Assembly: GCF_020510525.1 (NCBI RefSeq)
Contig: NZ_CP075188.1
Location: 3,596,001 to 3,660,000 of the forward strand
Direction of reading: 5' to 3'
DNA length: 64,000 nt
Source: Quatrionicoccus australiensis
Lineage (GTDB): Bacteria; Pseudomonadota; Gammaproteobacteria; Burkholderiales; Rhodocyclaceae
Under the pieces are notes generated by a model. It saw only the letters and a list, made by a program, of their open reading frames with translations. It searched no databases and was not told where the DNA came from. Shown in pieces: positions 12,400 through 25,078 of this stretch (within the stretch, counting starts at the first letter, position 1; each line of letters starts with the position of its first letter). A program made the position numbers and the translations under genes.

Positions 12400-12738
12400 A
12401 TGTCCCTGCCCAACTGCCCGCAATGCAAGTCCGAATTCACCTACGAAGACGGCGCCATGTACGTCTGCCCGGAATGCGCCCATGAATGGAGCAAGGACGC
12501 CGCAGCCGACGCCGGCGAACAGGCCAAGGTCTGGAAGGACGCCAACGGCAACGTCCTGCAGGACGGCGACACCGTCACCGTGATCAAGGATCTCAAGATC
12601 AAGGGCTCGTCGTCGGTCGTCAAGGTCGGCACCAAGGTCAAGAACATCCGCCTGATCGACGGCGACCACGACATCGACTGCAAGATCGACGGCATCGGCG
12701 CCATGCAATTGAAGACCGAGTTCGTCAAGAAGGTCTAA
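12400..12738 (+). CDS. yjdM: YjdM/PhnA-family zinc-ribbon protein
   Basis: 112 residues, the usual size. N-terminal zinc ribbon with '[12 protein letters not shown]' and 'CPECAHEW' (residues 6-31), then the compact PhnA domain '[60 protein letters not shown]'. Despite the historical name it is not a phosphonate hydrolase and the true role is unclear. Follows sulP by 13 nt with an AAGGA ribosome site, so likely co-transcribed. Confidence 0.92.
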
Positions 12739-12771
12739 GATCCGGAATCAAACCAGGCAAGGAGAACGGCC

Positions 12772-13002
12772 ATGACCGCAGACCAACTGAAGGAAGCTTT
12801 CACTTCACCCTGGCCGTTCTTTGGCGTCAGCCCGCACGGCGACGTGCTGGCGCGCTACGTGCCGTTCGGCCCGGTCTTTCGCTGGAGCCGCAACCAGATG
12901 ATCCCGATGCCTGTCCAGGGCAGCGACCTGTGCTGGCTGCTCCAGGCCGCGGCCGAAGAAGGCCACTCGATCACCGACACCGAAGCGCCCCGCAAGAAAT
13001 AG
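12772..13002 (+). CDS. Small conserved-looking protein, unknown function
   Basis: 76 residues with a strong ribosome site (AAGGAG 8 nt before the ATG). Trp- and Pro-rich ('SPWPFFGVSPHGDVLARYVPFGPVFRWSRNQMIPMPVQG'), no membrane segment, no signal peptide. I do not recognise it. It follows yjdM by 33 nt and is the last gene of the sulP unit, converging on the NuoM-like gene with a 4-nt gap. Confidence 0.7.
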   Translation: MTADQLKEAFTSPWPFFGVSPHGDVLARYVPFGPVFRWSRNQMIPMPVQGSDLCWLLQAAAEEGHSITDTEAPRKK

Positions 13003-13006
13003 GCGC

Positions 13007-14464
13007 TCAGCGCCCGAGCCCGGCCGCCCAGGCTTCCGCCGCCGGGCGGACAATCTCTATCCAGGGTCCGGGATAGATGCCGATCCCGGCCACCATCGCA
13101 ATCAAGGCCACCAGCACCAGCCATTCGCGCGGCCGCAGGTCTTCGGCCTGCGCCACTTCCGGCCGCGTCAGCGGCCCGAAGAAAGCCTTGCGGTAAAGCG
13201 ACAAAAAGCCGCCGGCCGCGATCGACAGCGCGAACAAGGCAGCCAGCCCGGCACCGGTATGGCTGTGCAGGGTCGCGATGATCAGCATGAATTCCCCGGG
13301 AAAGCTGCTCGTTCCCGGCATGCCGACCCCGGCCAGACCGCAGATCAGGAAACCGCTGGCCAACAGCGGCATCGTCTTCGCCGCGCCACCCAAACTATTG
13401 ATATCGGTCGACCCGGTGCGCTGGCGCAAAAACTCGAGCAGGATGAAAGCGCCGCCGGTCGCCACGGCAAAGCTGAGCAGCAGCGAAATCGCGCCCTGCG
13501 CCGCCTGCGCGGTGAACGCCGACAGACCGAGCACGGCAAGGCCGACGTGGCAGATGCTGGCATAGGCCAGACCGACGCGCAGGTTGCTCTGCGCCAGCAT
13601 GCCGACCGCGCCGTAGAGCAGCGCCAGCGTGCCGAGACCGGCAAGCAGCCAGTGCAGATCCTGCGCCGCCAGCGGTGCGAGCGGAATGGCGAAGCGCACC
13701 AGGCCGAAGGCGCCGATTTTCAGGCCGACCAGCAGTGCGGTCAGCGAGCCCGGCGCGGCGAGCGCGAACTGCGGCAGCCAGGTATGCAGCGGCACGAAGG
13801 GCACCTTGAGGCCGAAGCCGAGCAGCAGGAGCAGGAAGACCGCGTACTGGGTCGAGCGTGGCAGGTCGGCGGCGAGCAGCAGGCTCAGATCGAAGGTCGG
13901 CACTGGCTGGCTGGCGGCAAGCAGGATGAAGGCAAGCAGCAGCGGAATACCGCCGGCCAGCATGATCAGGAAATAGCGCGCCGCAACGCGGCCGGCATCG
14001 ACTGTCGCGCCCCAGCGCCCGAGCAGGAAATAGATAGGCAACAGCGTTGCTTCCCAGAAGACGAAGAAGAGCAGCGTGTCGAGGGCGCAGAAAATGCCCA
14101 GCGTCGCGCTCTGCAACAGCAGCAACAGGCTGTAATGCAGGCGGCGATTTTCTTCGATGCTGTTCCAGCAGGCGACCAGCGAGCCGAGGAAGAGCAGCGC
14201 CGTAGCCGGCAAAAAGAGCACGGAAAGACCGTCGACCGCTACGAAATACTGCACATTCAGTCCGGCGATCCATACCGCCCGCTCGACGAACTGGAAAGGC
14301 TCGCCGGTCGGCACGAAAACGAACAGGATCCAGGTCGCGAGCAGCAGGCTCAGCGTCATGCCGGCCGCCACCAGATGCCGGGTCAGGCGCGCCGGCAGCA
14401 GCCAGAGCAGCGCTGCCGTTGCCAACGGCAGGAAAATGAGCAGGGAAAGCAGCGGCAGCTTCAT
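13007..14464 (-). CDS. NuoM-like antiporter subunit (last gene of DabA operon)
   Basis: Polytopic membrane protein of 485 residues in the proton-translocating NuoL/M/N-MrpA/D superfamily. The key charged residues are in place: Glu in 'FFVFWEATLLPIYFLLG', Lys in 'GFGLKVPFVPLHTWLPQ', and Lys in 'VGLKIGAFGLVRF'. The start at 14464 overlaps the previous stop as ATGA, so translation is coupled. Conserved residues argue that it can move protons. No NuoE/F/G or quinone-module gene is nearby, so it is not part of complex I. Confidence 0.85.
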   Translation of the reverse strand: MKLPLLSLLIFLPLATAALLWLLPARLTRHLVAAGMTLSLLLATWILFVFVPTGEPFQFVERAVWIAGLNVQYFVAVDGLSVLFLPATALLFLGSLVACWNSIEENRRLHYSLLLLLQSATLGIFCALDTLLFFVFWEATLLPIYFLLGRWGATVDAGRVAARYFLIMLAGGIPLLLAFILLAASQPVPTFDLSLLLAADLPRSTQYAVFLLLLLGFGLKVPFVPLHTWLPQFALAAPGSLTALLVGLKIGAFGLVRFAIPLAPLAAQDLHWLLAGLGTLALLYGAVGMLAQSNLRVGLAYASICHVGLAVLGLSAFTAQAAQGAISLLLSFAVATGGAFILLEFLRQRTGSTDINSLGGAAKTMPLLASGFLICGLAGVGMPGTSSFPGEFMLIIATLHSHTGAGLAALFALSIAAGGFLSLYRKAFFGPLTRPEVAQAEDLRPREWLVLVALIAMVAGIGIYPGPWIEIVRPAAEAWAAGLGR

Positions 14465-15963
14465 CGCACAAACCTCGTGGCGATCGCCTGACTGGCGGCT
14501 TCCGTCAGATGCAGCCAGGGTTCGGCAAAGAAGCCGATAACCAGCAGGGCAAGCAGCGCAATGCCGCAAACGACGTACTCCATCAGCTGCGTATGTTCGA
14601 CCTCGACCGCCCCCGTCTGCCGCTGGCTGAGGAAGGCGCGCTGGAAAGCCCAGAGCAGGAAGCCGGCGGCAGCGACGTTGCCGAGCGCAGCGGCGACTGT
14701 GGGCAGGGCGCCGAAATTGTCGATGGCTGCTTCGAGCACCAGGTGGGCGGCATCGAAACCGGGCGTGCCGGGCATGCCGACGATGGCCAGACCGCAGCCG
14801 AGGAAGGCAATGGCGAGGAAGGGAATGCGCTCGAACAGGCCGGACAGCTCATGCAGCTCGGTGGTGCCAGTGCGCCGGAAAACAAAGCCGACGATGAACC
14901 ACATGCCGGTCACCGCCAGCCCGAAATTGGCGGCGAGCAGCACGGCACCCTGAATGCCGGATTCGTGCAGGCTAAACACACCGATCACCAGCAGGCTGGT
15001 ATGGCTGACCACGGCAAAGGCAAGCAGCCGGCGCAGGTCGGACTGCTGGAAGGCGAGCGCCGCGGTGAAGAAGATCCCGGCCATCGCGAAGCCGACGACG
15101 TAGGGCTGCCAGTAGGCGACCGCCGTTGGCGTCAGCGGCAGCACGAAGCGCAGCATGCCGTAGATGCCGACCTTGACGCCGACCATCAGCGCCGGCGCGA
15201 CGGCGATCAGCCCGTGCTGCGCCATGTTGGGCAGCCAGCCGTGCAGCGGAAAGAGCGGCGTGCGCACGGCAAGGCCGTAGAACAGCAGGTAGAAGGCGGC
15301 GGTCTGGAACTTCCCGACCGGCAGCGTCTGCTGCAGGTCGAACAGGTCGAAGCTCCAGCGCCCGGCATGCGCCTCGGCATGCCCCCAGCCGAGCACGACG
15401 CAACCGGCGGCAAAGAGCGCCCAGCCGAACGCCTGATACTGGACGAAGCGCGCCAGCGCCTGCGTCTCGACGCGTGAGGCCGCCCAGTGCCGGAGCAGGA
15501 AAACGACCGCCCACAACTCGAGCGCCGAGAAAGCGGCAAACCAGGCCAGGTTCAGGGTCAGCAGCATGCCGACCAAGCCGCCTTCGGCGAGCAGCAGCAC
15601 ACTGAACAGCAGACCCGGCGAGATGCGGCTGCGGCTCATGCCGTACAAGGTCATCAACAGCGTCAGCAAGGCGGCGAGCAGCAAAAAGACCAGACTGATG
15701 CCGTCGACCGCCACATGCCAGGCAAGCGGCGCGAAACGCTCGGCCAGTTGCAGCGCCGGCGAAGTCGGATCGATGCGCCCGACGACGTAGACGAGCAGCA
15801 GCAATTCGGCCAGCGCCAGGCATTTTGCCGCCAGCGCAGCGGTCGACCGCTGGCGCAGGGCCAAAACCAGCGCCGCGCCGAACAGCGGCAGCAGTTGCAC
15901 GAGCAACAGCAGCGGCAGGCTGCCCTGCTGCGTCCAGAAAATTTCAGTCAGCACCGTATTCAC
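14461..15963 (-). CDS. Divergent NuoM-like antiporter subunit
   Basis: 500 residues, about 14 predicted membrane helices. It belongs to the same superfamily but is less canonical: the normally conserved Lys of the 'GxxVKxPxxPLHxWLP' motif is Arg here ('GLAVRTPLFPLHGWLPNMAQHG'), and the helix-5 Glu is displaced ('SALELWAVVFLL'). The other Lys ('VGVKVGIYGMLRF') is kept. GTG start at 15963 overlaps the upstream stop (GTGA). This subunit may have lost or altered pumping and serve a structural role (inference). Confidence 0.82.
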   Translation of the reverse strand: MNTVLTEIFWTQQGSLPLLLLVQLLPLFGAALVLALRQRSTAALAAKCLALAELLLLVYVVGRIDPTSPALQLAERFAPLAWHVAVDGISLVFLLLAALLTLLMTLYGMSRSRISPGLLFSVLLLAEGGLVGMLLTLNLAWFAAFSALELWAVVFLLRHWAASRVETQALARFVQYQAFGWALFAAGCVVLGWGHAEAHAGRWSFDLFDLQQTLPVGKFQTAAFYLLFYGLAVRTPLFPLHGWLPNMAQHGLIAVAPALMVGVKVGIYGMLRFVLPLTPTAVAYWQPYVVGFAMAGIFFTAALAFQQSDLRRLLAFAVVSHTSLLVIGVFSLHESGIQGAVLLAANFGLAVTGMWFIVGFVFRRTGTTELHELSGLFERIPFLAIAFLGCGLAIVGMPGTPGFDAAHLVLEAAIDNFGALPTVAAALGNVAAAGFLLWAFQRAFLSQRQTGAVEVEHTQLMEYVVCGIALLALLVIGFFAEPWLHLTEAASQAIATRFVR

Positions 15964-17486
15964 AGGATCACCACGAAAGTCGCCATCACCGCCATCATCA
16001 AATAGCGCGGTTGTTCAAGCAGGTTTTCCAGCGTCCGCAGGTAGCTGCCCAGATGCTGCAACAGGCGTTCGGCCGTGCCGCCGCGACCGCGCAGCAGCAG
16101 GCGGTTCTCGATCCGTTGCAGGAGGTCGGAAACGCCCGCCAGGGCCCGGCCGGGCAGGCCATCGACGCGCACCAGCGGGCGCTCCGGCTGCACCGCGTGG
16201 CCGGCGCCGGGCTGGCCGATGGCGCGGTCGATGAAATGTTCCTCGAGGCCGCGCACGTCGCGTGCGAAGGATTCGGTCGGCTGCACAAACAGCTTGTCGG
16301 CCAGCGTATCCAGCCAGAAACGCTGTAGCGCGGCGGTGTACAGCCATTGCCGGCGCTGCAGCCAGGCCGGTGGCGGCGCCGGGCGGGCGCGCGTCAGGTC
16401 CAGCCAGGACGGCGCCAGCAGGAAGTGCCAGACGCGCCAGCCGGCATGCAGGCAGAGATGAATCAGCGCCAGCGTCGTCCAGCCGAGGCCGATCTCGACG
16501 AACATCAGGCCGACCTGGAAGACAGTGGCGAAGATCAGCGCCGACTTGACGTCGCTCTGCACCAGGCCGCACAGCCAGGCGTAGATGGCCGTCGCGGCGC
16601 CGGCCACGACCAGCCCGAGCATGACGTCGGGCACTTCGACGAGGAGCGGTTCGAGGCGCAGCATCAGGTAGACGCCGGCATGCACCATGACCGCGCCGTA
16701 GAAGATCGCCGAGGACGGCGTCGGGCCTTCCAGCGCGCGCGTGATCCACGGCGTGAAGGGCAGTTGCGCCGACTTGGCGAGGGCGGCGATAACGAAACCG
16801 ATGATCAGCAGGCGGGCATTGACGACGCTGATCTGGTGCGCCTTCGACAAGGCCGTCCACTCGAAACCGCCGAGCCAGGCCGCGGCAAGCGCCAGCGCCA
16901 GCAGGAAACCGGCATCGCCGCCGCGATTGGTGACGAAGGCGAACAGCGCATTGCCGGTCGCCACCGGCCGGTGCCAGGCGTAACCGATGAGCAGGAAGGA
17001 CGAGACGCCGCACATTTCCCAGCCGACGAAGGCGAGCAGGCCGTTGCCGGCGAGCAGCACGAGCTGGATGCCGGCCAGGAAGAAGGACAGCGCGATGAAG
17101 AAACGATGGAAGCCGGCCTCGCGATGCAGGTAATTGGCCGAGAAGCGCGTCACCAGCCAGCCGATCAGCGCGGTCAGCGTGCCGAGCGTCAGCGACAGCG
17201 GGTCAAGCATGAAGGAGAAGGTCGCCTCCCAGTTGCCGGTGCCGAACCAGTGGCCGAGCCGGTGATGGCCGGGCGCGCCGTGCAGCAGCGCATGCAGGTC
17301 GATGGCGAGGAGCAGCAGCAGGCCGGCGAAAGCGGCCAGCGACGCCAGATTGGCGGTCAGCGGCTCGCTGGCATCGCCTTTGGCGAGACCGAGCAGGACG
17401 CGCGCCGCGTTGACGGCGACAGCGAGCAGCGGCAGGGCCGGCACCAGCCAGATCCAGTCGTGCAGGGCGGCAAGCATTTCCAGCAT
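15960..17486 (-). CDS. dabB: NuoL/DabB-like membrane subunit
   Basis: 508 residues. NuoL-type core: 'GWEMCGVSSFLLIGYAWHRP', 'FVTNRGGDAGFLLAL', 'AKSAQLPFTPWITRALEGPTPSSAIFYGAVMVHAGVYLMLR', the last block close to the pattern seen in DabB partners of DUF2309 proteins. The C-terminal third (from about residue 370) is soluble and charged with 'LHAGWRVWHFL' before it. In Halothiobacillus DabA-DabB and staphylococcal MpsB-MpsA, the NuoL-like protein is the membrane partner that couples a cation gradient to inorganic carbon uptake. It begins one base into the DabA stop (TGATG). The symbol is by analogy. Confidence 0.8.
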   Translation of the reverse strand: MLEMLAALHDWIWLVPALPLLAVAVNAARVLLGLAKGDASEPLTANLASLAAFAGLLLLLAIDLHALLHGAPGHHRLGHWFGTGNWEATFSFMLDPLSLTLGTLTALIGWLVTRFSANYLHREAGFHRFFIALSFFLAGIQLVLLAGNGLLAFVGWEMCGVSSFLLIGYAWHRPVATGNALFAFVTNRGGDAGFLLALALAAAWLGGFEWTALSKAHQISVVNARLLIIGFVIAALAKSAQLPFTPWITRALEGPTPSSAIFYGAVMVHAGVYLMLRLEPLLVEVPDVMLGLVVAGAATAIYAWLCGLVQSDVKSALIFATVFQVGLMFVEIGLGWTTLALIHLCLHAGWRVWHFLLAPSWLDLTRARPAPPPAWLQRRQWLYTAALQRFWLDTLADKLFVQPTESFARDVRGLEEHFIDRAIGQPGAGHAVQPERPLVRVDGLPGRALAGVSDLLQRIENRLLLRGRGGTAERLLQHLGSYLRTLENLLEQPRYLMMAVMATFVVIL

Positions 17487-20400
17487 CAGGCAGCTCCGAG
17501 AATGATGGCCGGGGCCAGCGGCTCTGATTCGCCGGCAAACCAGTCGGCCGAACGCGCCACCTGCGGCAGCGCGCTACCGCCGTCCCAGGGCAACCAGCCA
17601 CGGCGCGGGCAATATTGTTCGAGCGCACCGGTCAACGGGTCGCAGGCGGCCAAAACGACCCAGGCATTGCCGATCAGTTCCTGCAGCGCCGGCTGGCGGT
17701 ACAGGATGGCGGTCAGCACGGCCGGCGTCTGTTCGACGACGACGAGCAGGCGCATCGGCTCGTGGATTTCGACCATTTGCAGCGGTAGGCCGGTACGCAG
17801 GTCGGAATCGGCACCTTCCATGACACCGAACAGGCCGGTGATGTTGTGGGTGATCTTCGAGCCGCAGCCGAAGACATCGTTATTCACCGTCGAGAAGTAA
17901 TATTCGAGCGAAATCCCGGCCCCGACCGGACCGGCCGCAAGCAGGATGCCTTCGACGATTTTTCCTTCGTCGTCGCCGACCGGATCATAGGAAATCAGGA
18001 AGACGCGACGATCGAGGAAGAGGCCGCGGCTCATCGTGCGGCGGCCGATGAAGGCGGCGGCATTGGTCGCATGGCCGAGTTCCGGCCGCGCCTGCGAGAT
18101 GTCGTTGGCGCGGCCGCGCATGTGGCGCAGCGCCAGCCAGGGATTCGGCCGCTCCGGTGCCGAGGCGAGCCGGCGGCAGCGCTCGGCGGCATGCGCCCGG
18201 CAGGCCTCGCCGACTTGCCGGACCAGGGTTTCCAGCGCCCCCTGAAAGACGGTCGGCACGGTGTCGAGGTCGTACCATTCGACGCCGTCGTCGCAGGTGT
18301 TGTGCTCGGCGGCGACGAACCAGCAAGAGTCGGGAATGCTCAGGCCGCGCGCCGCCAGCCCGGCGCGCACTGCCGGCCGGTTGGCCATGCTGGCGAAAAC
18401 GCGGGCATTGGCGCCGCCATGCTTGCCGGAACAGGCGCCGCAGGCGTAGGCCGAGTAATGGGGATTGTTGCGGCTGCCCGAGCCATGGCCGAACATCAGA
18501 ACCAGCGGCGCAAAATTGTCGGTCAGGCCGATCATGCGCAGGAAGGCTTCCACCCGGTCGACCTGCTCCAGATCGGTAAAACCGGCCTGCGGTTGTGCCG
18601 GGGTACCGGGACTCGCCTCTTCGGCGGTCAGCGCCAGTTGCGTCGGCAGGCGCCCTTCGAACCATGTTCGCCAGCGCTTGACGGCAGCGCCGAACCAGCC
18701 CGGCGCCAGCGTCGTTGCGGTCAGCGCGGCGAGTGCCGGCACGCCGGCCAATGCCGTCAGCAGCGGCCCGCCCAAAGCCCGCCGGCGGGTTGCCTGGTAG
18801 AGGCGTTCGCGCCAGCGCAGGCGGCTTTCACGCTGCGCGACATGCCGGGCCAGCCCGGCCACCGCGGCGGGCCGGACGGTCTCGCGCACGAGGTGGGTCG
18901 GTTGCACGACGACCGGGCAGAGCGCACTCTTCTCCGGATCGTCGAGGCCCTGCCACCACATCGGCACGCCGAAGAAACCGGCAGCGCCATAGGTCATGAT
19001 GTCCGGCGCGATTTCCTCGAGATGACGGCGCGTCCCCTCCTCGCGGTCGTCCATGCACATCACGACCTGGGCGGCCGGTGCCGCAATGGGGAAGTGGCGA
19101 TACTGGTTGGCACGCAGGCCGGCGAACAACTGCTCGCGATAATGCCGCTCGTAGGCGAGCAGCCAGAGCTGGCCGCGCTCTGCATCAGAGAGTTCGGCGG
19201 CAACGGCGAGCAGACGCTGCGCCGCAGCCGGCGTCAGCGCGTCGAGCACCGCGGGCGGCAAGGCCAGGTGACGCAGCAGGCCCGCCAGGCGCGAGGCGGA
19301 TGAGACTTCGACCGGGCGAGCCGCGGCGATCTGCGCCGCCATTTCTGCCCATTTCTTCTCGTCGACCGCCTGCTGCTCATCGGCCAGCAACAAACGTCCG
19401 GCAGCATGCTGCAAGGCCTCGTCCAGACCGCCACGGCGAATGGCATCGCGCACGTAGAACTCGGCCGCCTCGGCCAGGTAATAGCCCTGCAGTTCGTCGA
19501 ATTCCATGGCCGAGCCGGTCAGCCGGCGCAGCAGGTCTTCGCAGAGCAGGCGCTCAAGCAGCACACGCACCGCCAGGTAATCGACCATCGCGATGCGGCT
19601 GCCGTCACCGAAGCCGGGATGCCGGTCGCGCCACAGGAACATGCCGGACCAGCCCGGCTGCTCCAGCGCCAGGCGTTCGAGATAGACCGGCCAGTGCGCC
19701 TCGTCCGGCAGCAGGCGGGCCAGTTCGGCGAGCAGCACCTCGCCGGGGTCGTCCGGCAGCTGCGCGATCTCGTCGCGGATACTGTGCAGGTCGCCAATTT
19801 CCCAGAAGGCATCCGACGCCGCCGAGGCGCGCCAGGCGGCATAGAAGCCCTGTTCGCGCGCCGGGTTGCGCCAGGCCGCGACGCCGAGGTCGAGATGCGC
19901 GGCGAGCTGTCGCTGCAGCATGCTGCGCACCGTTTCCAGCACATCCTCGCCACTCAGGTGTTGCAGCAGACTGCGCAGCGTCCACTCCTTGCCGACCCGG
20001 GCACACAGCGCCAGCCAGCGCTGTCTGGCAACGGCAGGCCAGTCCTCGCCAGACGCCGTGTCGGCTGCGCCTGCGGTCAACGCCGTGGCGCGGGCAAAAA
20101 ACGGATCGTCGCGCATGCCTTCCCGCGCCAGCCAGCCCTGGCGACTTGCCGTCGGTGCGTCACCCGGCGTCAGCAAACTGGCGAGCAGCACGTCGCGCCG
20201 CGTACAGCCGGCAGCGATCAATTCGTCCAGACCGCTCAGGCCGAGCTCAGCGAACGCGGCCTGCAGATCGCCGGCGTCGATCCGCCCGGCCGCATATGCC
20301 GCCCGAAAACGCTCTTCCGGCCAGTACATGCGGGCGCCAGTCAGTTCATTGACACTGGCCAACGCTTCGGCAAAAGGCAGATGCTGGAATCCGTGCAGCG

Positions 20401-20512
20401 TGTTGTGATGGACGAAATCGCGGATCGGCGCCTGCGCCGGCAGGATGTGCGTCAGGTGCTCGATCCAGTGCTGCAAACGTTCGCGGATGGGCAGTTCGGC
20501 AGCGACGTGCAT
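17486..20512 (-). CDS. dabA: DUF2309/DabA-type inorganic carbon transporter subunit
   Basis: Soluble, peripheral protein of 1008 residues (DUF2309). Studied DabA proteins have a beta-carbonic-anhydrase-like zinc site made of Cys, Asp, His, Cys. All four positions are present here: C486 and D488 in 'CMDDREEG', H676 in 'FGHGSGSRNNPHYSAYACG', and C691 in 'ACGACSG'; the His-to-Cys spacing is 15, as in Halothiobacillus DabA (H524/C539). The N-terminus starts 'IRDFVHHNTLHGFQHLPF', typical of the family. The ATG at 20512 lies 1 nt after the upstream stop; the longer frame to 20605 overlaps that gene and is unlikely. Predicted role: hydrate CO2 to bicarbonate vectorially, driven by the NuoL/M-like partners. 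Known from family: function; inferred: activity here. Confidence 0.88.
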   Translation of the reverse strand: MHVAAELPIRERLQHWIEHLTHILPAQAPIRDFVHHNTLHGFQHLPFAEALASVNELTGARMYWPEERFRAAYAAGRIDAGDLQAAFAELGLSGLDELIAAGCTRRDVLLASLLTPGDAPTASRQGWLAREGMRDDPFFARATALTAGAADTASGEDWPAVARQRWLALCARVGKEWTLRSLLQHLSGEDVLETVRSMLQRQLAAHLDLGVAAWRNPAREQGFYAAWRASAASDAFWEIGDLHSIRDEIAQLPDDPGEVLLAELARLLPDEAHWPVYLERLALEQPGWSGMFLWRDRHPGFGDGSRIAMVDYLAVRVLLERLLCEDLLRRLTGSAMEFDELQGYYLAEAAEFYVRDAIRRGGLDEALQHAAGRLLLADEQQAVDEKKWAEMAAQIAAARPVEVSSASRLAGLLRHLALPPAVLDALTPAAAQRLLAVAAELSDAERGQLWLLAYERHYREQLFAGLRANQYRHFPIAAPAAQVVMCMDDREEGTRRHLEEIAPDIMTYGAAGFFGVPMWWQGLDDPEKSALCPVVVQPTHLVRETVRPAAVAGLARHVAQRESRLRWRERLYQATRRRALGGPLLTALAGVPALAALTATTLAPGWFGAAVKRWRTWFEGRLPTQLALTAEEASPGTPAQPQAGFTDLEQVDRVEAFLRMIGLTDNFAPLVLMFGHGSGSRNNPHYSAYACGACSGKHGGANARVFASMANRPAVRAGLAARGLSIPDSCWFVAAEHNTCDDGVEWYDLDTVPTVFQGALETLVRQVGEACRAHAAERCRRLASAPERPNPWLALRHMRGRANDISQARPELGHATNAAAFIGRRTMSRGLFLDRRVFLISYDPVGDDEGKIVEGILLAAGPVGAGISLEYYFSTVNNDVFGCGSKITHNITGLFGVMEGADSDLRTGLPLQMVEIHEPMRLLVVVEQTPAVLTAILYRQPALQELIGNAWVVLAACDPLTGALEQYCPRRGWLPWDGGSALPQVARSADWFAGESEPLAPAIILGAA

Positions 20513-20513
20513 C

Positions 20514-21959
20514 TCAGGCTCCGAACAGGCGGGCAAGCTGGCCGACGCTGCCGGCGACCAGTTCGAGCAGCGGGGCCGGCCACAGGCCAAGCCCGACGAT
20601 GGCAAAAGCCAGGATGCCGGCCGCGCTCATCTCGGTGCGCGTCATGTCGGCCAGTTGCATCGGTTCGCCCTTGAGGCAGAGGCGGCCGATCACGCGCAGG
20701 CTGTAGGCGGCGCCGATCAGCATGGCGATGCCAAGCAGCAGCACCCAGCCCTGCCAGCGTGCGAAACCGCCGATCAGCGCATGCAGTTCGGCGATGAAGC
20801 CGGCGCTGCCCGGCAAGCCCAGCGCGGCAAGCAGCGCGAAGGCGATGAAGAAGGCGAAGCGCGGCGCCTGCCCGGTCAACGCGCCGTAATCGGCCAGATC
20901 GCGACTGTGCGTGCGCTGGTACAGCAGGCCGACAAGCAGGAAGAGCAGGCCGGCGGTCAGGCCGTGCGCCACCATCTGCATCACCGCGCCGGTCAGGCCG
21001 GTGACGTTGAGCGTTGCGATGCCGAGCAGCACGATCCCCATGTGCGAGATCGACGAATAGGCGACCATCGCCTTGAGATCCTGCTGCCGCCAGGCAAGAA
21101 TGCCGCCGTAGAGCAGGCTGACGCAGGCGAGCAGGGCCAGCCAGTCCTGCGTCGCGAGCAAGGCGGCAGGCAGCGTTTCGGCAGCGCGGATCAGGCCGTA
21201 GGCGCCCATCTTGAGCAGCACGCCGGAGAGCAGGATGGACACCGGACTCGGCGCCTCGACGTGGGCCAGCGGCAGCCAGCCGTGCAGCGGAAAGACCGGC
21301 ATCTTGACGCCGAAACCGATGAACAGGCCGGCGAAGATCAGCAATTGCATGTTGAGCGGCAAGCCGCGCCCGCCGGCCGCCATGTCGGCCATCGCGAAAC
21401 TGTGGCCGGGTGCCGCGTCGTACAAAAAGAGCAGCGCGACCAGCATGAATACCGAGCCGCCCAAGGTGTACAGGAAGAAATTGAGCGCCGCCTTTTGCCG
21501 GTTCGGCCCGCCCAGGCGGTCGATCAGGAAGAACAGCGGCAGCAGCGTCGCTTCCCAGAACACGTAGAACAGCGACCAGTCACGCGCGGTGAATACGCCG
21601 AACATCGCCGATTCGAGGAGCAGGACGAGCATGAAATAGAGGCGGGCGCCCTCTTCCATACGGCGCGAGACAAGCACCGCGATCAGGGTCAGCAGGGCGG
21701 TCAACAGCACCATGGCGAGCGAAATGCCATCGACGCCGAGCGCAAAATAAGAGCCCAGACGCTTGTTCCAGGCCTGGCTTTCGAACATCTGGATGGCGGC
21801 ACCGGCCGGCTCGAATTGCGCGGCCAACCAACCCGAATAGGCCAGCGCGGCCAGCGCGAAGAGCATGGCCGTCTGCCAAAGCGGCAGGGCGCGCCGGGCC
21901 GGCAGCAAGGCAACGGCTGCCGCCCCGAGCACTGGCATGAAAACCAGCACCTTCAACAC
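20514..21959 (-). CDS. NuoM-like antiporter subunit (first gene of DabA operon)
   Basis: 481 residues, the most canonical NuoM copy of the operon: 'FYVFWEATLLPLFFLIDRLGG' (Glu), 'GFGVKMPVFPLHGWLPLAHVEAPSPVSILLSGVLLKMGAYGLIR' (two Lys), 'YSSISHMGIVLLG'. GTG start at 21959 with GGGGGAA 7 nt upstream. It is the promoter-proximal gene; a weak -10-like CATAAT lies about 50 nt upstream on the minus strand, in the gap shared with the divergent peroxiredoxin gene. Confidence 0.85.
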   Translation of the reverse strand: MLKVLVFMPVLGAAAVALLPARRALPLWQTAMLFALAALAYSGWLAAQFEPAGAAIQMFESQAWNKRLGSYFALGVDGISLAMVLLTALLTLIAVLVSRRMEEGARLYFMLVLLLESAMFGVFTARDWSLFYVFWEATLLPLFFLIDRLGGPNRQKAALNFFLYTLGGSVFMLVALLFLYDAAPGHSFAMADMAAGGRGLPLNMQLLIFAGLFIGFGVKMPVFPLHGWLPLAHVEAPSPVSILLSGVLLKMGAYGLIRAAETLPAALLATQDWLALLACVSLLYGGILAWRQQDLKAMVAYSSISHMGIVLLGIATLNVTGLTGAVMQMVAHGLTAGLLFLLVGLLYQRTHSRDLADYGALTGQAPRFAFFIAFALLAALGLPGSAGFIAELHALIGGFARWQGWVLLLGIAMLIGAAYSLRVIGRLCLKGEPMQLADMTRTEMSAAGILAFAIVGLGLWPAPLLELVAGSVGQLARLFGA

Positions 21960-22081: not shown

Positions 22082-22128
22082 GGTTGTTTCCCCCAACCCC
22101 CAGATCACATCTTAATAAGGAGATCACC

Positions 22129-22728
22129 ATGGCCGTTCTCGTCGGCAAGCAAGCCCCGGATTTCACCGCCACCGCCGTCTTTGGCAACAATGAAATCAAG
22201 GACCTGAAACTCTCCGATTTCAAGGGCAAGCCGGTTGTCCTGTTCTTCTACCCGCTCGACTTTACCTTCGTCTGCCCGTCCGAGCTGATCGCCTTCGATC
22301 ACCGCCTGGAAGAGTTCAAGCAGCGTGGCGTTGAAGTGATCGGCGTCTCGATCGACTCCCAGTTCACCCACCTGGCCTGGAAAAACACCGCAATCAAGGA
22401 CGGCGGCATCGGCCAGGTCGGCTACCCGCTGGTTGCCGACGTCAAGCATGACATCTGCCGCGCCTACGACGTCGAACTCGAAAGCGACGGCGTCGCCCTG
22501 CGCGGTTCCTTCCTGATCGACAAGACCGGTGTCGTCATGCACCAGGTCGTCAACATGCTGCCGCTCGGCCGCAACATCGACGAAATGCTGCGCATGGTCG
22601 ATGCCCTGCAGTTCTTCGAAGAACACGGCGAAGTCTGCCCGGCCGGCTGGAACAAGGGCAAACCGGGCATGACCGCCTCGACTGAAGGCGTTGCCGCCTA
22701 CCTCGCGAAGAACGCCAAGAAGCTGTAA
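22129..22728 (+). CDS. Typical 2-Cys peroxiredoxin (AhpC/Prx1 type)
   Basis: Thiol peroxidase of 199 residues that reduces H2O2, organic peroxides or peroxynitrite. Peroxidatic C49 in 'DFTFVCPSE', resolving C170 in 'GEVCPAGW', and the '[19 protein letters not shown]' block are present. Such proteins need a thiol reductase (AhpF, AhpD or thioredoxin); none is adjacent. AAGGAG precedes the chosen ATG; the frame's upstream ATG at 22084 has no ribosome site. Monocistronic: own promoter and terminator. Confidence 0.93.
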
Positions 22729-22758
22729 TTCGCCGCTGTCCCCCTGACGGGACGGAAC

Positions 22759-22803
22759 AAAAAGCCCCGAATGCCGCACCAATGGCAGGCGGGGCTTTTT
22801 TTA
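22759..22803 (+). terminator. Terminator of the peroxiredoxin gene
   Basis: Stem AAAAAGCCCC / GGGGCTTTTT with an inner TGCC/GGCA pairing and a T-run, 30 nt after the stop. Confidence 0.9.
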
Positions 22804-22870
22804 TCCTGACAAAAAATCCCGGAAGGGACTAAAATTTGACACTTTTGCAAGTTCTGGATCAAAAGCAATC

Positions 22871-23458
22871 ATGGCAGACACGGAATTTCTCAGCACCCGC
22901 CAAGCAGCGCTACGCCTTGGCGTATCCCTCGGCACCGTACAGAACATGGTGGAAAGCGGCGCCCTTGACGCCTGGAAGACGGCCGGCGGGCATCGCCGCA
23001 TTCCCGCCACCTCGGTCGAGGCCATGCTGGCCAGGCGCAAGAGTCAGAGCGCCTCACCGGAAACAGTCGCCAGCCTCGACATCCTGATTGCCGAAGACGA
23101 CCCCATCCTGCAAAAGCTTTACCAGGCAACCTTCGAGCGCTGGAACCTGCCGCTCCAGCTGCGCATCGTCGACAACGGTTTTGAAGGTCTGGTCCAGGTC
23201 GGCCAGCGCATGCCCGATGTCCTGATCGCCGACCTGATGATGCCCGGCATGGACGGTTTCGAGATGATTCGTCGCCTTCGCGCCAACCCGGATCTCGCCG
23301 CCATGGACATCGTCGTGATCAGTGCCATCGACAGCGCCGAGATCGCCCAGCAGGGTCTGCCGGAAGACGTCACGGTATTTGCCAAGCCGATTCCCTTCCA
23401 CGAAATCAAGGGCTTCATGCTCGGTCGCCTGGCCTCGCGCCAGCGCCCCGTGCGCTGA
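22871..23458 (+). CDS. Excisionase/MerR-type HTH fused to a receiver domain
   Basis: 195 residues with an unusual order: a small winged-helix domain of the excisionase/helix-turn-helix-17 class at the N-terminus (residues 5-55, 'STRQAALRLGVSLGTVQNMVESGALDAWKTAGGHRRIPATSVEAML') and a full receiver domain at the C-terminus (68-190). The receiver has the 'EDD' pocket, phospho-acceptor D121 in 'IADLMMPGMDG', and 'KPIPFHE'. Most response regulators have the receiver first. It is followed after about 100 nt by a soluble chemoreceptor, so a link between phosphorelay, transcription and taxis is possible. Confidence 0.85.
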   Translation: MADTEFLSTRQAALRLGVSLGTVQNMVESGALDAWKTAGGHRRIPATSVEAMLARRKSQSASPETVASLDILIAEDDPILQKLYQATFERWNLPLQLRIVDNGFEGLVQVGQRMPDVLIADLMMPGMDGFEMIRRLRANPDLAAMDIVVISAIDSAEIAQQGLPEDVTVFAKPIPFHEIKGFMLGRLASRQRPVR

Positions 23459-23560
23459 TCCCGCAGCACAGTGACAGACCGCCAAACGGCGGCGTATTAT
23501 CGGGCGCAACGCTGCCGCCCTATCCCGGTCGCAGCAACACATAATAAGCAGGAGACGAAA

Positions 23561-25078
23561 ATGGGATTTTTTGGCAACAATGGCGCGCTCGACAAGATCG
23601 ACCGCGATATTTCGGCAATTGCCGATGGCAGCGCCGATCTCTCGCTGGCGGTCGGCAACTCCGGCAACGATGCCACCGGGCGCATCTCCGGCAACATCAA
23701 CCGCTTTTTCAGCCGCGTCCGCGATCTGATTTCCCATGCGCGAGTCCGCAGCGTCAGCATTGCCGCCGACGCTGCCCGCATGAATCACCTCGTGCAACAG
23801 ACCGACGATGCCGTGCGCCGCCAGGAATCCCTGGCCGGCGCTGTTTTCGAGTCGAGCAACCGGGTCAACCAGGCGGTCAGCGAGGTAGCGACCAACGCCG
23901 ACGCCATCCAGGCCTCGACCCAGAACAATCTCGATCTCGCGCAACGTTCCCTCGAACAGATGGAAACCGTGGCAAGCACGATGCGCTCGACCAACGAACA
24001 CATCGAACACTTTTCCTCGACGGTCAGCGAACTGCATACCAGCTCGATGAAGATCAACGAGATCGTCTCGCTGATCAACGACATTTCCGACCAGACCAAT
24101 CTGCTCGCGCTCAATGCGGCGATCGAAGCCGCACGCGCCGGCGAAGCCGGGCGCGGCTTCGCGGTGGTTGCCGACGAAGTGCGCAAGCTGGCCGAGAAGG
24201 TCAAGACCGCCACCCAGGTGATCGGCCAGAACACCCAGTCGATGATCAACCTGGTTGCCGACACCTCGAGCAAGACGCAAACCATAGTCGGCGAGGTCAC
24301 GCGCGCCAACGAATACATCGAAACTTCGGCCGCCGACCTGACCACCATGGTCGGTGACTTCAAGCGCACCACCGAACAGCTGACGACGATTGCCGGCGCC
24401 ATCTACAACCTGCGCGAAAGCAACCAGAGCATCCACGGCGAAGTCGAGGAAATCCGCAACCACTCACTGGACATTTCCGGCCGCATGAAACAGTGCCTGG
24501 GTTCGGCCAAGACCTTGCGCGAATCGACCGAAGACCTGCAATGCACGCTGGCCGACTTCCGTACCGGCAACAGCATGTTCGACACCCTGCACGACAAGTG
24601 CACCGGCTTCCGCGATCAGGTGACAGCAGTCCTGCAGCGCCTGAGCGACCGTGGCGTCAATGTCTTCGACCAGGCCTACAAGGACATTCCCGGCTCCAAC
24701 CCGAAACGCTTCACGACCGCCTATGATGGCCAGTGTGACAGCGAGCTGACCCGGATGTACGACGATCTGCTGCGTGACATGCAAGGCCTGACCTATTCGC
24801 TGGCGGTTGATACCAACGGCTACGCGCCGGCCCACAACGGCGTGTTCTCGAACCCGCCCAGCGGCGACCCGGCAATCGACCTGACCAAGTGCCGCCACAA
24901 GCGCATCTTCAACGATCCGGTCGGCCTGAAACTGGCCAAGAACCAGAAGTCTTCGCTGTTCCAGACCTACGTCCGCGACACCGGCGAAATCCTCAACGAC
25001 CTGTCGATGCCCATCATCATCAACGGCCGCCACTGGGGCGCCGTGCGCATCGGCTTCAAGACCGATCTGGTAGTTTAG
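23561..25078 (+). CDS. Cytoplasmic methyl-accepting chemotaxis protein
   Basis: 505 residues, no signal peptide and no membrane segment, so a soluble receptor. Residues about 80-330 form the coiled-coil signalling domain with the conserved tip '[39 protein letters not shown]'. The C-terminal 150 residues form a possible sensory module with Cys residues ('CTGFRDQV', 'QCDSEL', '[10 protein letters not shown]') and end like a Cache-type domain ('[20 protein letters not shown]'). Sensor domain after the signalling domain is also seen in other cytoplasmic receptors. Start at 23561 is set by AGGAG. Ligand unknown. Confidence 0.87.

What the first reader, a model, noticed from the sequence alone, without database searches (positions are those of the whole stretch)
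13007..21959. DabA-type protein with four antiporter-like subunits in one overlapping operon
Known DAB/Mps systems are usually one DUF2309 protein plus one NuoL-like protein. Here five genes with overlaps of 1-4 nt or a 1-nt gap are arranged as NuoM, DabA, NuoL/DabB, divergent NuoM, NuoM. DabA keeps C486, D488, H676 and C691 with the expected 15-residue His-Cys spacing. No complex I hydrophilic gene is present. That suggests a multi-pump complex in which CO2 hydration is driven by several proton or Na+ paths, or a related energy-coupled anion pump.
Basis: partly seen in the sequence, partly recalled or inferred. Interest (0 to 1): 0.72.

Follow-up and report, generated by a model that had tools for sequence, protein, structure and literature searches.

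The report
Five-gene CO2-hydration pump, complex-I-like arm
Some bacteria carry a larger version of a known membrane-powered CO2-capturing enzyme, in which the carbonic-anhydrase-like subunit appears to sit on a row of four proton-channel-like proteins resembling the membrane arm of respiratory complex I, wired differently from the one version whose structure is known.

Summary
In detail: five tightly packed minus-strand genes (21959-13007) encode NuoM-like Ma, a 1008-aa DabA, NuoL-like DabB, divergent NuoM-like Mc and NuoM-like Md. It is not a one-off: all four antiporter types flank DabA in 58 of 80 loci of a DabA-seeded scan. In a sample of 397 Pseudomonadota genomes, 24 of 26 genomes with a fetched 'large-type' DabA have all four (in two they form a separate cluster); the other two are cut by contig ends. 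The other 43 of 68 fetched loci are ordinary dabB-dabA pairs. This is a distinct branch of the DAB family: the zinc site is invariant, but DAB2's essential Glu444 is absent (0 of 88) and Leu658 and Ser356 are invariantly His and Glu. DabB has lost NuoL's TM12-15 but keeps complex I's ion-pair switch and a longer lateral rod. Ma and Md keep complete proton-channel residues; Mc is rewired. Best reading: a PMF-driven CO2 hydratase on a complex-I-like arm with two intact proton paths, not four, perhaps geared for low PMF. COGNAT (2017) reported the neighbourhood type and the idea that subunit number sets ion number; the dissection here was not found in the library searched. Assembly and activity are untested.

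The parts
20514..21959 (-). Ma: NuoM-type antiporter subunit (481 aa), complete proton-path residues
   Evidence: PF00361 and TIGR01972 472 bits; TM5 Glu, TM7 Lys, TM8 Lys, TM12 Glu in 76/76 loci
17486..20512 (-). DabA, large type (1008 aa), beta-CA-like zinc subunit
   Evidence: PF10070 810 bits; start and residues; tree
19055..19057 (-). codon of C486 (zinc ligand, = DabA2 C351); D488 and R490 follow
19040..19042 (-). codon of E491 (Ser356 in DabA2; Glu in the large-type DabA aligned)
   Evidence: Glu in 86/86 five-gene loci with a letter there (2 gaps) and 11/11 three-gene; Ser in 43/43 two-gene
18752..18754 (-). codon of A587, aligned with the essential finger Glu444 of DabA2
18485..18487 (-). 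codon of H676 (zinc ligand, = H524)
18440..18442 (-). codon of C691 (zinc ligand, = C539)
18071..18073 (-). codon of H814 (Leu658 in DabA2, transition-state position)
   Evidence: His 88/88 five-gene, 11/11 three-gene; Leu 43/43 two-gene
15960..17486 (-). DabB (Lb): NuoL-type half antiporter, TM1-11 only, 508 aa
16017..16322 (-). DabB residues 389-490: lateral rod (HL-like helix of NuoL)
   Evidence: AlphaFold helices 389-423, 443-465, 471-490 (block means of pLDDT 54-76 from residue 411 on); length 104-121 aa in the 71 of 76 loci where the pattern was found, against 59 aa between points matched by eye in the organism's own NuoL
15963..16016 (-). DabB C-terminal membrane helix that ends the rod
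14461..15963 (-). Mc: divergent NuoM-type subunit (500 aa), TM5 Glu and TM12 Glu lost, TM7 Lys to Arg, TM12 D404/H407/E411
13007..14464 (-). Md: NuoM-type antiporter subunit (485 aa), complete proton-path residues
10695..12386 (+). SulP-family transporter, convergent neighbour (not in the operon)
   Evidence: PF00916, DauA-like but under NCBIfam cut-off; SulP ORF on 42 of 88 five-gene and 0 of 43 two-gene stretches

Best explanation
A five-subunit, large-type DAB complex: a PMF-driven vectorial CO2 hydratase. The beta-carbonic-anhydrase-like DabA (zinc by C486, H676, C691; D488/R490 dyad) docks on DabB, a NuoL reduced to its first half-channel. DabB keeps NuoL's lateral rod and end helix, which tie Mc, Ma and Md into a row like the membrane arm of complex I. 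Inferred steps: inward proton flow through the intact Ma and Md channels is passed along the array by the complex-I-type switch in DabB (E157/R188, D191/K238) and the rewired Mc to DabA, which then hydrates CO2 to bicarbonate in one direction only. Several protons per CO2 would give a strong bicarbonate gradient even at low PMF. Shown by sequence: gene set, zinc site, lost Glu444, H814/E491, channel residues, loss of DabB TM12-15. Inferred: assembly, order in the array, proton stoichiometry, ion and substrate.
For: Zinc ligands and Asp-Arg dyad are kept in two-, three- and five-gene types wherever the column has a letter. All four antiporter types are present in 24 of 26 sampled genomes with a fetched large-type DabA, the other two being cut by contig ends, and also where dabA is unlinked: L195 and L196 hold the four together elsewhere. 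Each subunit is one clade and the main groups recur in the subunit trees and the DabA tree. Ma and Md keep TM5 Glu, TM7 Lys, TM8 Lys, TM12 Glu; DabB keeps NuoL's E/R/D/K ion pairs, whereas two-gene DabB has Ile, Val and others for the Glu; in DAB2 that loss is an adaptation needed for optimal coupling (PMC13144422), and that it goes with the absence of partner subunits is my inference. The DabB model superposes on E. coli NuoL with residues 9-410 on 1-558, about 392 aligned, rmsd about 2.5, which with the sequence means that TM12-15 are skipped. Energetics: one proton at 0.18 V supports a 10^3 gradient, at 0.06 V only 10^1; three at 0.06 V give 10^3.
Against: No experiment. Glu444, essential in DAB2, is absent in 88 of 88 five-gene loci (Asp in 17) and no position of the finger helices is acidic throughout, so the known coupling route does not apply as it stands. 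The rod and end helix (from residue 411) are of low to middling model confidence. No model of the whole complex was made. True RuBisCO occurs in only 4 of 24 five-gene genomes, against 79 of 397 in the sample, so no tie to Calvin-cycle autotrophy is seen. The own genome has three beta-CA matches, so DabA need not be its only source of bicarbonate. The planctomycete K23_9 does without Ma and Md, so they are not needed by every large-type DabA.
Confidence: 0.6

Rival explanations
1. Sodium-coupled or bicarbonate-transporting version, as argued for MpsAB: the array imports Na+ (or exchanges Na+ and H+) and DabA handles bicarbonate.
For: MpsAB was proposed to be a Na+/HCO3- symporter and, unlike DAB2, rescues a sodium-transporter-deficient strain, as told in PMC13144422. 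Antiporter-like subunits are also found in Na+/H+ systems.
Against: DAB2 could not rescue the sodium-sensitive strain and worked without sodium. Ma and Md score best as complex I NuoM and far below cut-off as Mrp D. No residue test here tells H+ from Na+.
Confidence: 0.12
2. Different chemistry: H814 and E491 beside the zinc mean that large-type DabA hydrates or activates another small substrate, or is an ordinary reversible carbonic anhydrase.
For: 11 type-determining columns, two of them by the zinc site, separate it from the two-gene type.
Against: All zinc ligands, D488, R490 and H737 are kept, and 61 columns are near-invariant and the same in both types.
Confidence: 0.13
3. The four antiporters form their own Mrp-like or complex-I-arm-like unit that is only co-regulated with DabA.
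For: In two genomes the four sit apart from dabA.
Against: Those genomes still have both parts; dabA lies inside the cluster in the other complete large-type loci; DabB is the DabA partner by homology and belongs to the four. No room in the operon for MrpB, C, E, F or G.
Confidence: 0.08
4. DabA runs an exergonic reaction that drives ion export, as COGNAT proposed in 2017.
For: Intact complex-I-type channel residues in Ma and Md; the proposal is in print.
Against: CO2 hydration at pH 7.6 yields about 7 kJ/mol, under half of what one proton costs at 0.18 V (about 17 kJ/mol); DAB2 is argued to be PMF-driven.
Confidence: 0.05

Closest known systems
DAB2 (DabA2-DabB2) of Halothiobacillus neapolitanus, PDB 9rd0
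   Same: PF10070 subunit with identical zinc ligands and Asp-Arg dyad; PF00361 partner related to NuoL; TM11 histidines and equivalents of K238, D191, R188
   Different: DabA2 chain of 870 residues with finger Glu444, Leu658, Ser356; DabB2 has 15 TM, a short axial helix and Ile151 for Glu; no further antiporters (in the two-gene loci sampled here dabB is upstream of dabA)
'Clade C' ybcC-nuoL neighbourhoods of the COGNAT paper (PMC5700660)
   Same: dabA upstream of dabB, additional NuoM genes and a SulP neighbour; idea that subunit number sets ion number
   Different: The passages read give no subunit count, residue analysis by type or DabB truncation, and propose an exergonic reaction pumping ions out; its supplementary figure could not be read here
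Three-gene loci, mostly planctomycete (DabA, DabB, Mc-like)
   Same: Large-type DabA with His/Glu; DabB groups with Lb; second subunit groups with Mc
   Different: No Ma or Md at the locus (nor elsewhere in K23_9); DabB lacks the rod's end helix in the six sequences looked at
Membrane arm of respiratory complex I (NuoL-M-N)
   Same: Homologous antiporter subunits and a NuoL-type lateral rod; ion-pair switch kept
   Different: No hydrophilic-arm genes; a carbonic-anhydrase-like subunit instead; DabB lacks TM12-15
Cyanobacterial NDH-1MS CO2-hydrating complexes
   Same: CO2 hydration coupled to a complex-I-type membrane complex (as described in PMC13144422)
   Different: NDH-1MS is driven by ferredoxin oxidation; no redox genes here. 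That its CA-like subunit is unrelated to DabA is from memory

Membership tests
DAB/DAC family (PF10070 + PF00361) | PF10070 over the gathering score, full length | tested here: met
   810 bits, 1-747/747
DAB/DAC family (PF10070 + PF00361) | Zinc ligands C351, H524, C539 and D353-R355 dyad | tested here: met
   C486, H676, C691, D488, R490
DAB/DAC family (PF10070 + PF00361) | NuoL-like DabB partner next to DabA | tested here: met
DAB/DAC family (PF10070 + PF00361) | Rescue of a carbonic-anhydrase-free strain and PMF-dependent accumulation of inorganic carbon | not testable with these tools
   needs an experiment
DAB2-type two-subunit complex | Finger Glu444 in DabA | tested here: not met
   Ala587 in the window; Glu in 43/43 two-gene loci and 0/88 five-gene loci, of which 17 have Asp; the finger is less surely aligned than the zinc site
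DAB2-type two-subunit complex | Leu at the transition-state position (658) | tested here: not met
   His in 88/88 five-gene loci
DAB2-type two-subunit complex | DabB with TM12-15 and no Glu at position 151 | tested here: not met
   TM12-15 absent, Glu157 present
Respiratory complex I | Hydrophilic arm and NuoH/A/J/K genes with the antiporters | tested here: not met
   none among the flanking ORFs scanned; the genome's own complex I antiporter genes lie elsewhere
Mrp Na+/H+ antiporter | Seven-gene set with MrpB, C, E, F, G (recalled) | tested here: not met
   gene gaps of at most 1 nt leave no room inside; the neighbours on either side are AhpC-type and SulP genes; short ORFs were not scanned
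COGNAT clade C neighbourhood | dabA upstream of dabB with NuoM and SulP neighbours | tested here: met

The most novel reading that the evidence does not exclude
A carbonic anhydrase mounted on a purpose-built complex-I-like arm: proton flow through two full antiporter channels is relayed along a half-NuoL with an extended rod, replacing DAB2's finger-glutamate coupling by the long-range relay of complex I, and giving several protons per CO2 (a low-gear, high-force CO2 pump). Its zinc site, with a His at the transition-state position where DAB2 has Leu, may be catalytically competent by itself, unlike DAB2's.
Probability: 0.4. Interest if true: 0.82.

Novelty: new variant of a known kind. Interest (0 to 1): 0.6.

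Why it matters
How complex I's antiporter subunits relay energy over long distances is a long-standing question. A complex with the same kind of subunits but no redox chemistry, driven by PMF and reporting through a simple zinc reaction, would let that relay be studied by itself. It also splits the DAB family into two types: results from DAB2 (Glu444, Leu658) cannot simply be carried over to about a third of the DabA loci fetched from Pseudomonadota (25 of 68 large-type), nor to the five-gene loci of Dechloromonas/Azonexus, Accumulibacter, Methylobacter and Nitrotoga.

Tried and rejected
Four equal pumps: rejected, since Mc lost TM5 Glu and TM12 Glu and has Arg for TM7 Lys, and DabB lacks TM12-15. 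I do not call Mc dead: R234, K264, D404, H407, E411 are conserved in at least 71 of 73.

A fragment of complex I or of Mrp: rejected (no hydrophilic genes among the ORFs scanned, no room for the small Mrp genes; separate complex I).

Large DabA without antiporters: L149 and L184 looked like this; the antiporters turned out to be in another cluster of the same genomes.

Tie to Calvin-cycle autotrophy: RuBisCO matches of 385 bits or more in 4 of 24 five-gene and 4 of 43 two-gene genomes against 79 of 397 in all; Fisher p 0.80 for the five-gene set. No association seen. The other carbon-fixation pathways were not tested.

DabA fold search: the 1008-aa model (pLDDT 81.7) gave no significant Foldseek match, not even to beta-carbonic anhydrases. 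DAB2 (9rd0) did not appear; I presume that its release is later than the library's date (8 April 2026). DabA2 was matched by sequence only, so where H814 and E491 sit in space rests on alignment with DabA2, not on a model. DabB2 was not in the listed rows; its absence there shows nothing. Three E. coli or other NuoL rows were aligned over the whole rod only at rmsd of about 14-16, so the rod's course is not supported by the superposition.

Rows dropped or mislabelled: L004, L019 and L063 were left out of the counts. In the 76-locus counts the labels go by gene order in open frames; in L063 overlapping frames swapped DabB and Mc, and in L019 DabB and Mc share one open frame of 1015 aa and Md is in two pieces; these two account for the 2-of-76 outliers of DabB and Mc. 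L004 is cut at the contig end. The 76 loci include near-copies and at least one genome that seems to be in both samples (L038 and L168: contigs of the same length, same gene sizes), so they are not independent. The 80 loci were found with the window's own peptides (154 relatives, best 80 kept) and are biased towards its kind. Of the 74 genomes with a match, six with weak or fragmentary matches were not fetched (G069, G085, G178, G356, G374, G377; G085 and G069 may be large-type). In 5 of 76 loci the rod pattern was not found; in 9 of 76 one of the two patterns failed. The tree is a quick one without an outgroup; L077's second subunit has a very long branch.

Find-protein search gave 1427 relatives of DabA, best 120 listed; it carries no gene context and was not used further.

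Literature: searches for DabA/DabB, DUF2309/NuoM, DUF2309, YbcC/NuoL, 'inorganic carbon transporter subunit', PF10070/COG3002/UPF0753 and DAC titles gave, among what I opened, no paper describing the residues, the DabB truncation or a four-antiporter count. Opened: PMC13144422 (outline, introduction, two result sections, discussion), and passages only of PMC5700660, PMC10880623, PMC13399641, PMC8552792 and PMC12628692; the rest were seen as listings. Only open-licence papers are held, supplements could not be read, and the 2019 DAB paper and the J. Bacteriol. DAC paper did not come up.
Full report
What is there. Five genes lie head to tail on the minus strand between 21959 and 13007: Ma (481 aa), DabA (1008 aa from the ATG at 20512), DabB (508), Mc (500) and Md (485 from the ATG at 14464). 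Junctions are a 1-nt gap, then overlaps of 1, 4 and 4 nt. Pfam gives PF00361 in the four antiporter-like proteins and PF10070 over the full profile in DabA. NCBIfam's NuoM subfamily model TIGR01972 scores Ma 472, Md 380 and Mc 280 bits (cut-off 263.8); DabB is nearest to NuoL but under its cut-off. The genome is one 4.17-Mb contig with this single DabA, a separate complex I, one RuBisCO large-subunit match (410 bits) and three beta-carbonic-anhydrase matches. Its nearest named relatives in the scan are Rhodocyclales such as Dechloromonas and Azonexus.

How general it is. A scan with the window's DabA kept 80 loci. All four antiporter types flank DabA in the window's order in 58 of them (in 4 of the 58 a gene is cut or in pieces: L004, L007, L019, L040), 10 are cut by contig ends, 11 show DabA-antiporter-antiporter (ten planctomycete, one Pseudomonadota bin), and 1 short contig has DabA with a SulP gene alone. 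This set is biased to the query. A sample of 397 Pseudomonadota genomes, drawn evenly by the tool, gave a PF10070 match in 74. Apart from the window's own, the 68 strongest hits were fetched with flanks; six genomes with weak or fragmentary hits were not. Of the 68 loci, 43 are dabB-dabA pairs, most with a DabA of about 780-890 aa; 21 hold a large DabA with all four antiporter types (L160 with Mc in two pieces and Md cut by the contig end); 2 large-type loci are cut at contig ends (L180, L187); and 2 (L149, L184) have a large DabA alone. In both of those genomes all four antiporter types sit together in one other cluster (L196: Ma-Md-Lb-Mc; L195: Ma-Lb-Mc-Md). So, with the window, 24 of 26 genomes with a fetched large-type DabA have DabA plus all four antiporters, and the remaining two are cut. 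That the set holds even when the genes have moved apart is the best evidence that the five form one system.

Descent. In a tree of 126 antiporter proteins (quick method, no outgroup) each of Ma, Lb, Mc and Md is one clade (support 100, 95, 99, 99), planctomycete DabB groups with Lb (99) and the planctomycete second subunit with Mc (97, with long branches), and these DabB join complex I NuoL rather than two-gene DabB (97). Groups such as Azonexaceae + Accumulibacter + G186, Methylobacter + Nitrotoga, and Thiotrichaceae + G362 recur in the subunit trees and in the DabA tree; the first has only 91/99 in the DabA tree and the last only 93 in Ma. The DabA tree splits two-gene (100/100) from large-type (100/100), with the three-gene loci (100/99) beside the five-gene and split loci (100/100). 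With Md as query the planctomycete K23_9 has only two matches in its genome, both at its dab locus, so Ma and Md are absent there; TBK1r has seven, which I did not classify one by one. DabA + DabB + Mc therefore looks like the shared core, to which Ma and Md were added, or from which they were lost.

Active site and coupling residues. Against the solved DabA2 (PMC13144422; outline, introduction, two result sections and discussion read), C351, D353, R355, H524, C539 and H585 are kept in all types wherever the column has a letter. Two neighbours of the site differ by type: Ser356 (43/43 two-gene) is Glu in 86/86 five-gene loci with a letter and 11/11 three-gene loci; Leu658 (43/43) is His in 88/88 and 11/11. 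The DAB2 authors explain the low basal activity partly by Leu658, which replaces the transition-state residue of ordinary beta-carbonic anhydrases. Glu444 of the DabA finger, which is essential in DAB2 and stands in for NuoL's TM12 Lys-Asp, is Glu in 43/43 two-gene loci and in 0/88 five-gene loci, which have Ala 43, Asp 17, Leu 8, Val 7, Asn 4 and others; the window has Ala587. No position of the finger helices is acidic throughout (best 33 of 51, at residue 619, the far end). The finger is less surely aligned than the zinc site, and the 17 Asp mean that part of the five-gene loci may keep an acid there.

How it may work. CO2 hydration at pH 7.6 yields about 7 kJ/mol, and one proton at 0.18 V can hold bicarbonate a thousandfold above equilibrium, at 0.06 V only tenfold. 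Extra proton paths are therefore of little use at high PMF but would matter at low PMF. My reading is a low-gear CO2 pump: protons enter through Ma and Md, the array relays the change through Mc and the DabB switch, and DabA hydrates CO2 one way. Gene set, residues and truncation are shown; assembly, order, stoichiometry, ion and substrate are inferred.

Context and novelty. COGNAT in 2017 (PMC5700660, passages read) already noted that ybcC upstream of nuoL often comes with NuoM and SulP genes, and proposed that the number of membrane subunits sets the number of ions, though with an exergonic reaction pumping outwards. A SulP ORF is on 42 of 88 five-gene, 6 of 11 three-gene and 0 of 43 two-gene stretches; the stretches differ in length, the profile was seeded with the window's SulP, and many of the 42 are close relatives of the window. 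From memory, the DAC literature speaks of complexes of one to three subunits; that paper was not held. I therefore file this as a new variant of a known kind. What is new, as far as the searched library goes, is the four-antiporter composition as a conserved set, the lost Glu444, the invariant His and Glu by the zinc, and the half-NuoL DabB with a long rod.

Noticed in passing
L149 (G113) and L184 (G362): Large-type dabA alone among unrelated genes, with the four antiporter genes in a separate cluster of the same genome, in two different orders.
   Followed up: yes
L019:7981-11028: DabB and Mc lie in one open frame of 1015 aa in an Azonexus bin, with Md in two pieces; a real fusion or a sequencing error.
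   Followed up: partly
L140 (G338): One open frame of 1367 aa matches both the antiporter and the DabA profile: a possible dabB-dabA fusion of the two-gene type.
   Followed up: no
L075:1072-9679: Thiotrichaceae contig with a second DabA ORF (1096 aa) on the opposite strand just upstream of the five-gene cluster.
   Followed up: no
L128 and L180 (both G262): One genome holds both a two-gene dabB-dabA pair and a large dabA at a contig end.
   Followed up: no
L041, L044, L048, L062: Methylobacter (Methylococcaceae) and Candidatus Nitrotoga (Gallionellaceae) share a clade in all four subunit trees and the DabA tree, which suggests transfer of the whole five-gene block between distant families.
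   Followed up: partly
window 12486-13076 (+): 196-aa ORF without any Pfam or NCBIfam match, overlapping the 3' end of Md on the other strand; probably not a gene.
   Followed up: no
window 22084-25078 (+): AhpC-type peroxiredoxin, response regulator and chemoreceptor (MCP) genes upstream of the operon on the other strand; no link to the operon was tested.
   Followed up: no
L121 (G016): Two-gene locus with the longest branch among the two-gene DabB and DabA in the trees; possibly a further subtype.
   Followed up: no
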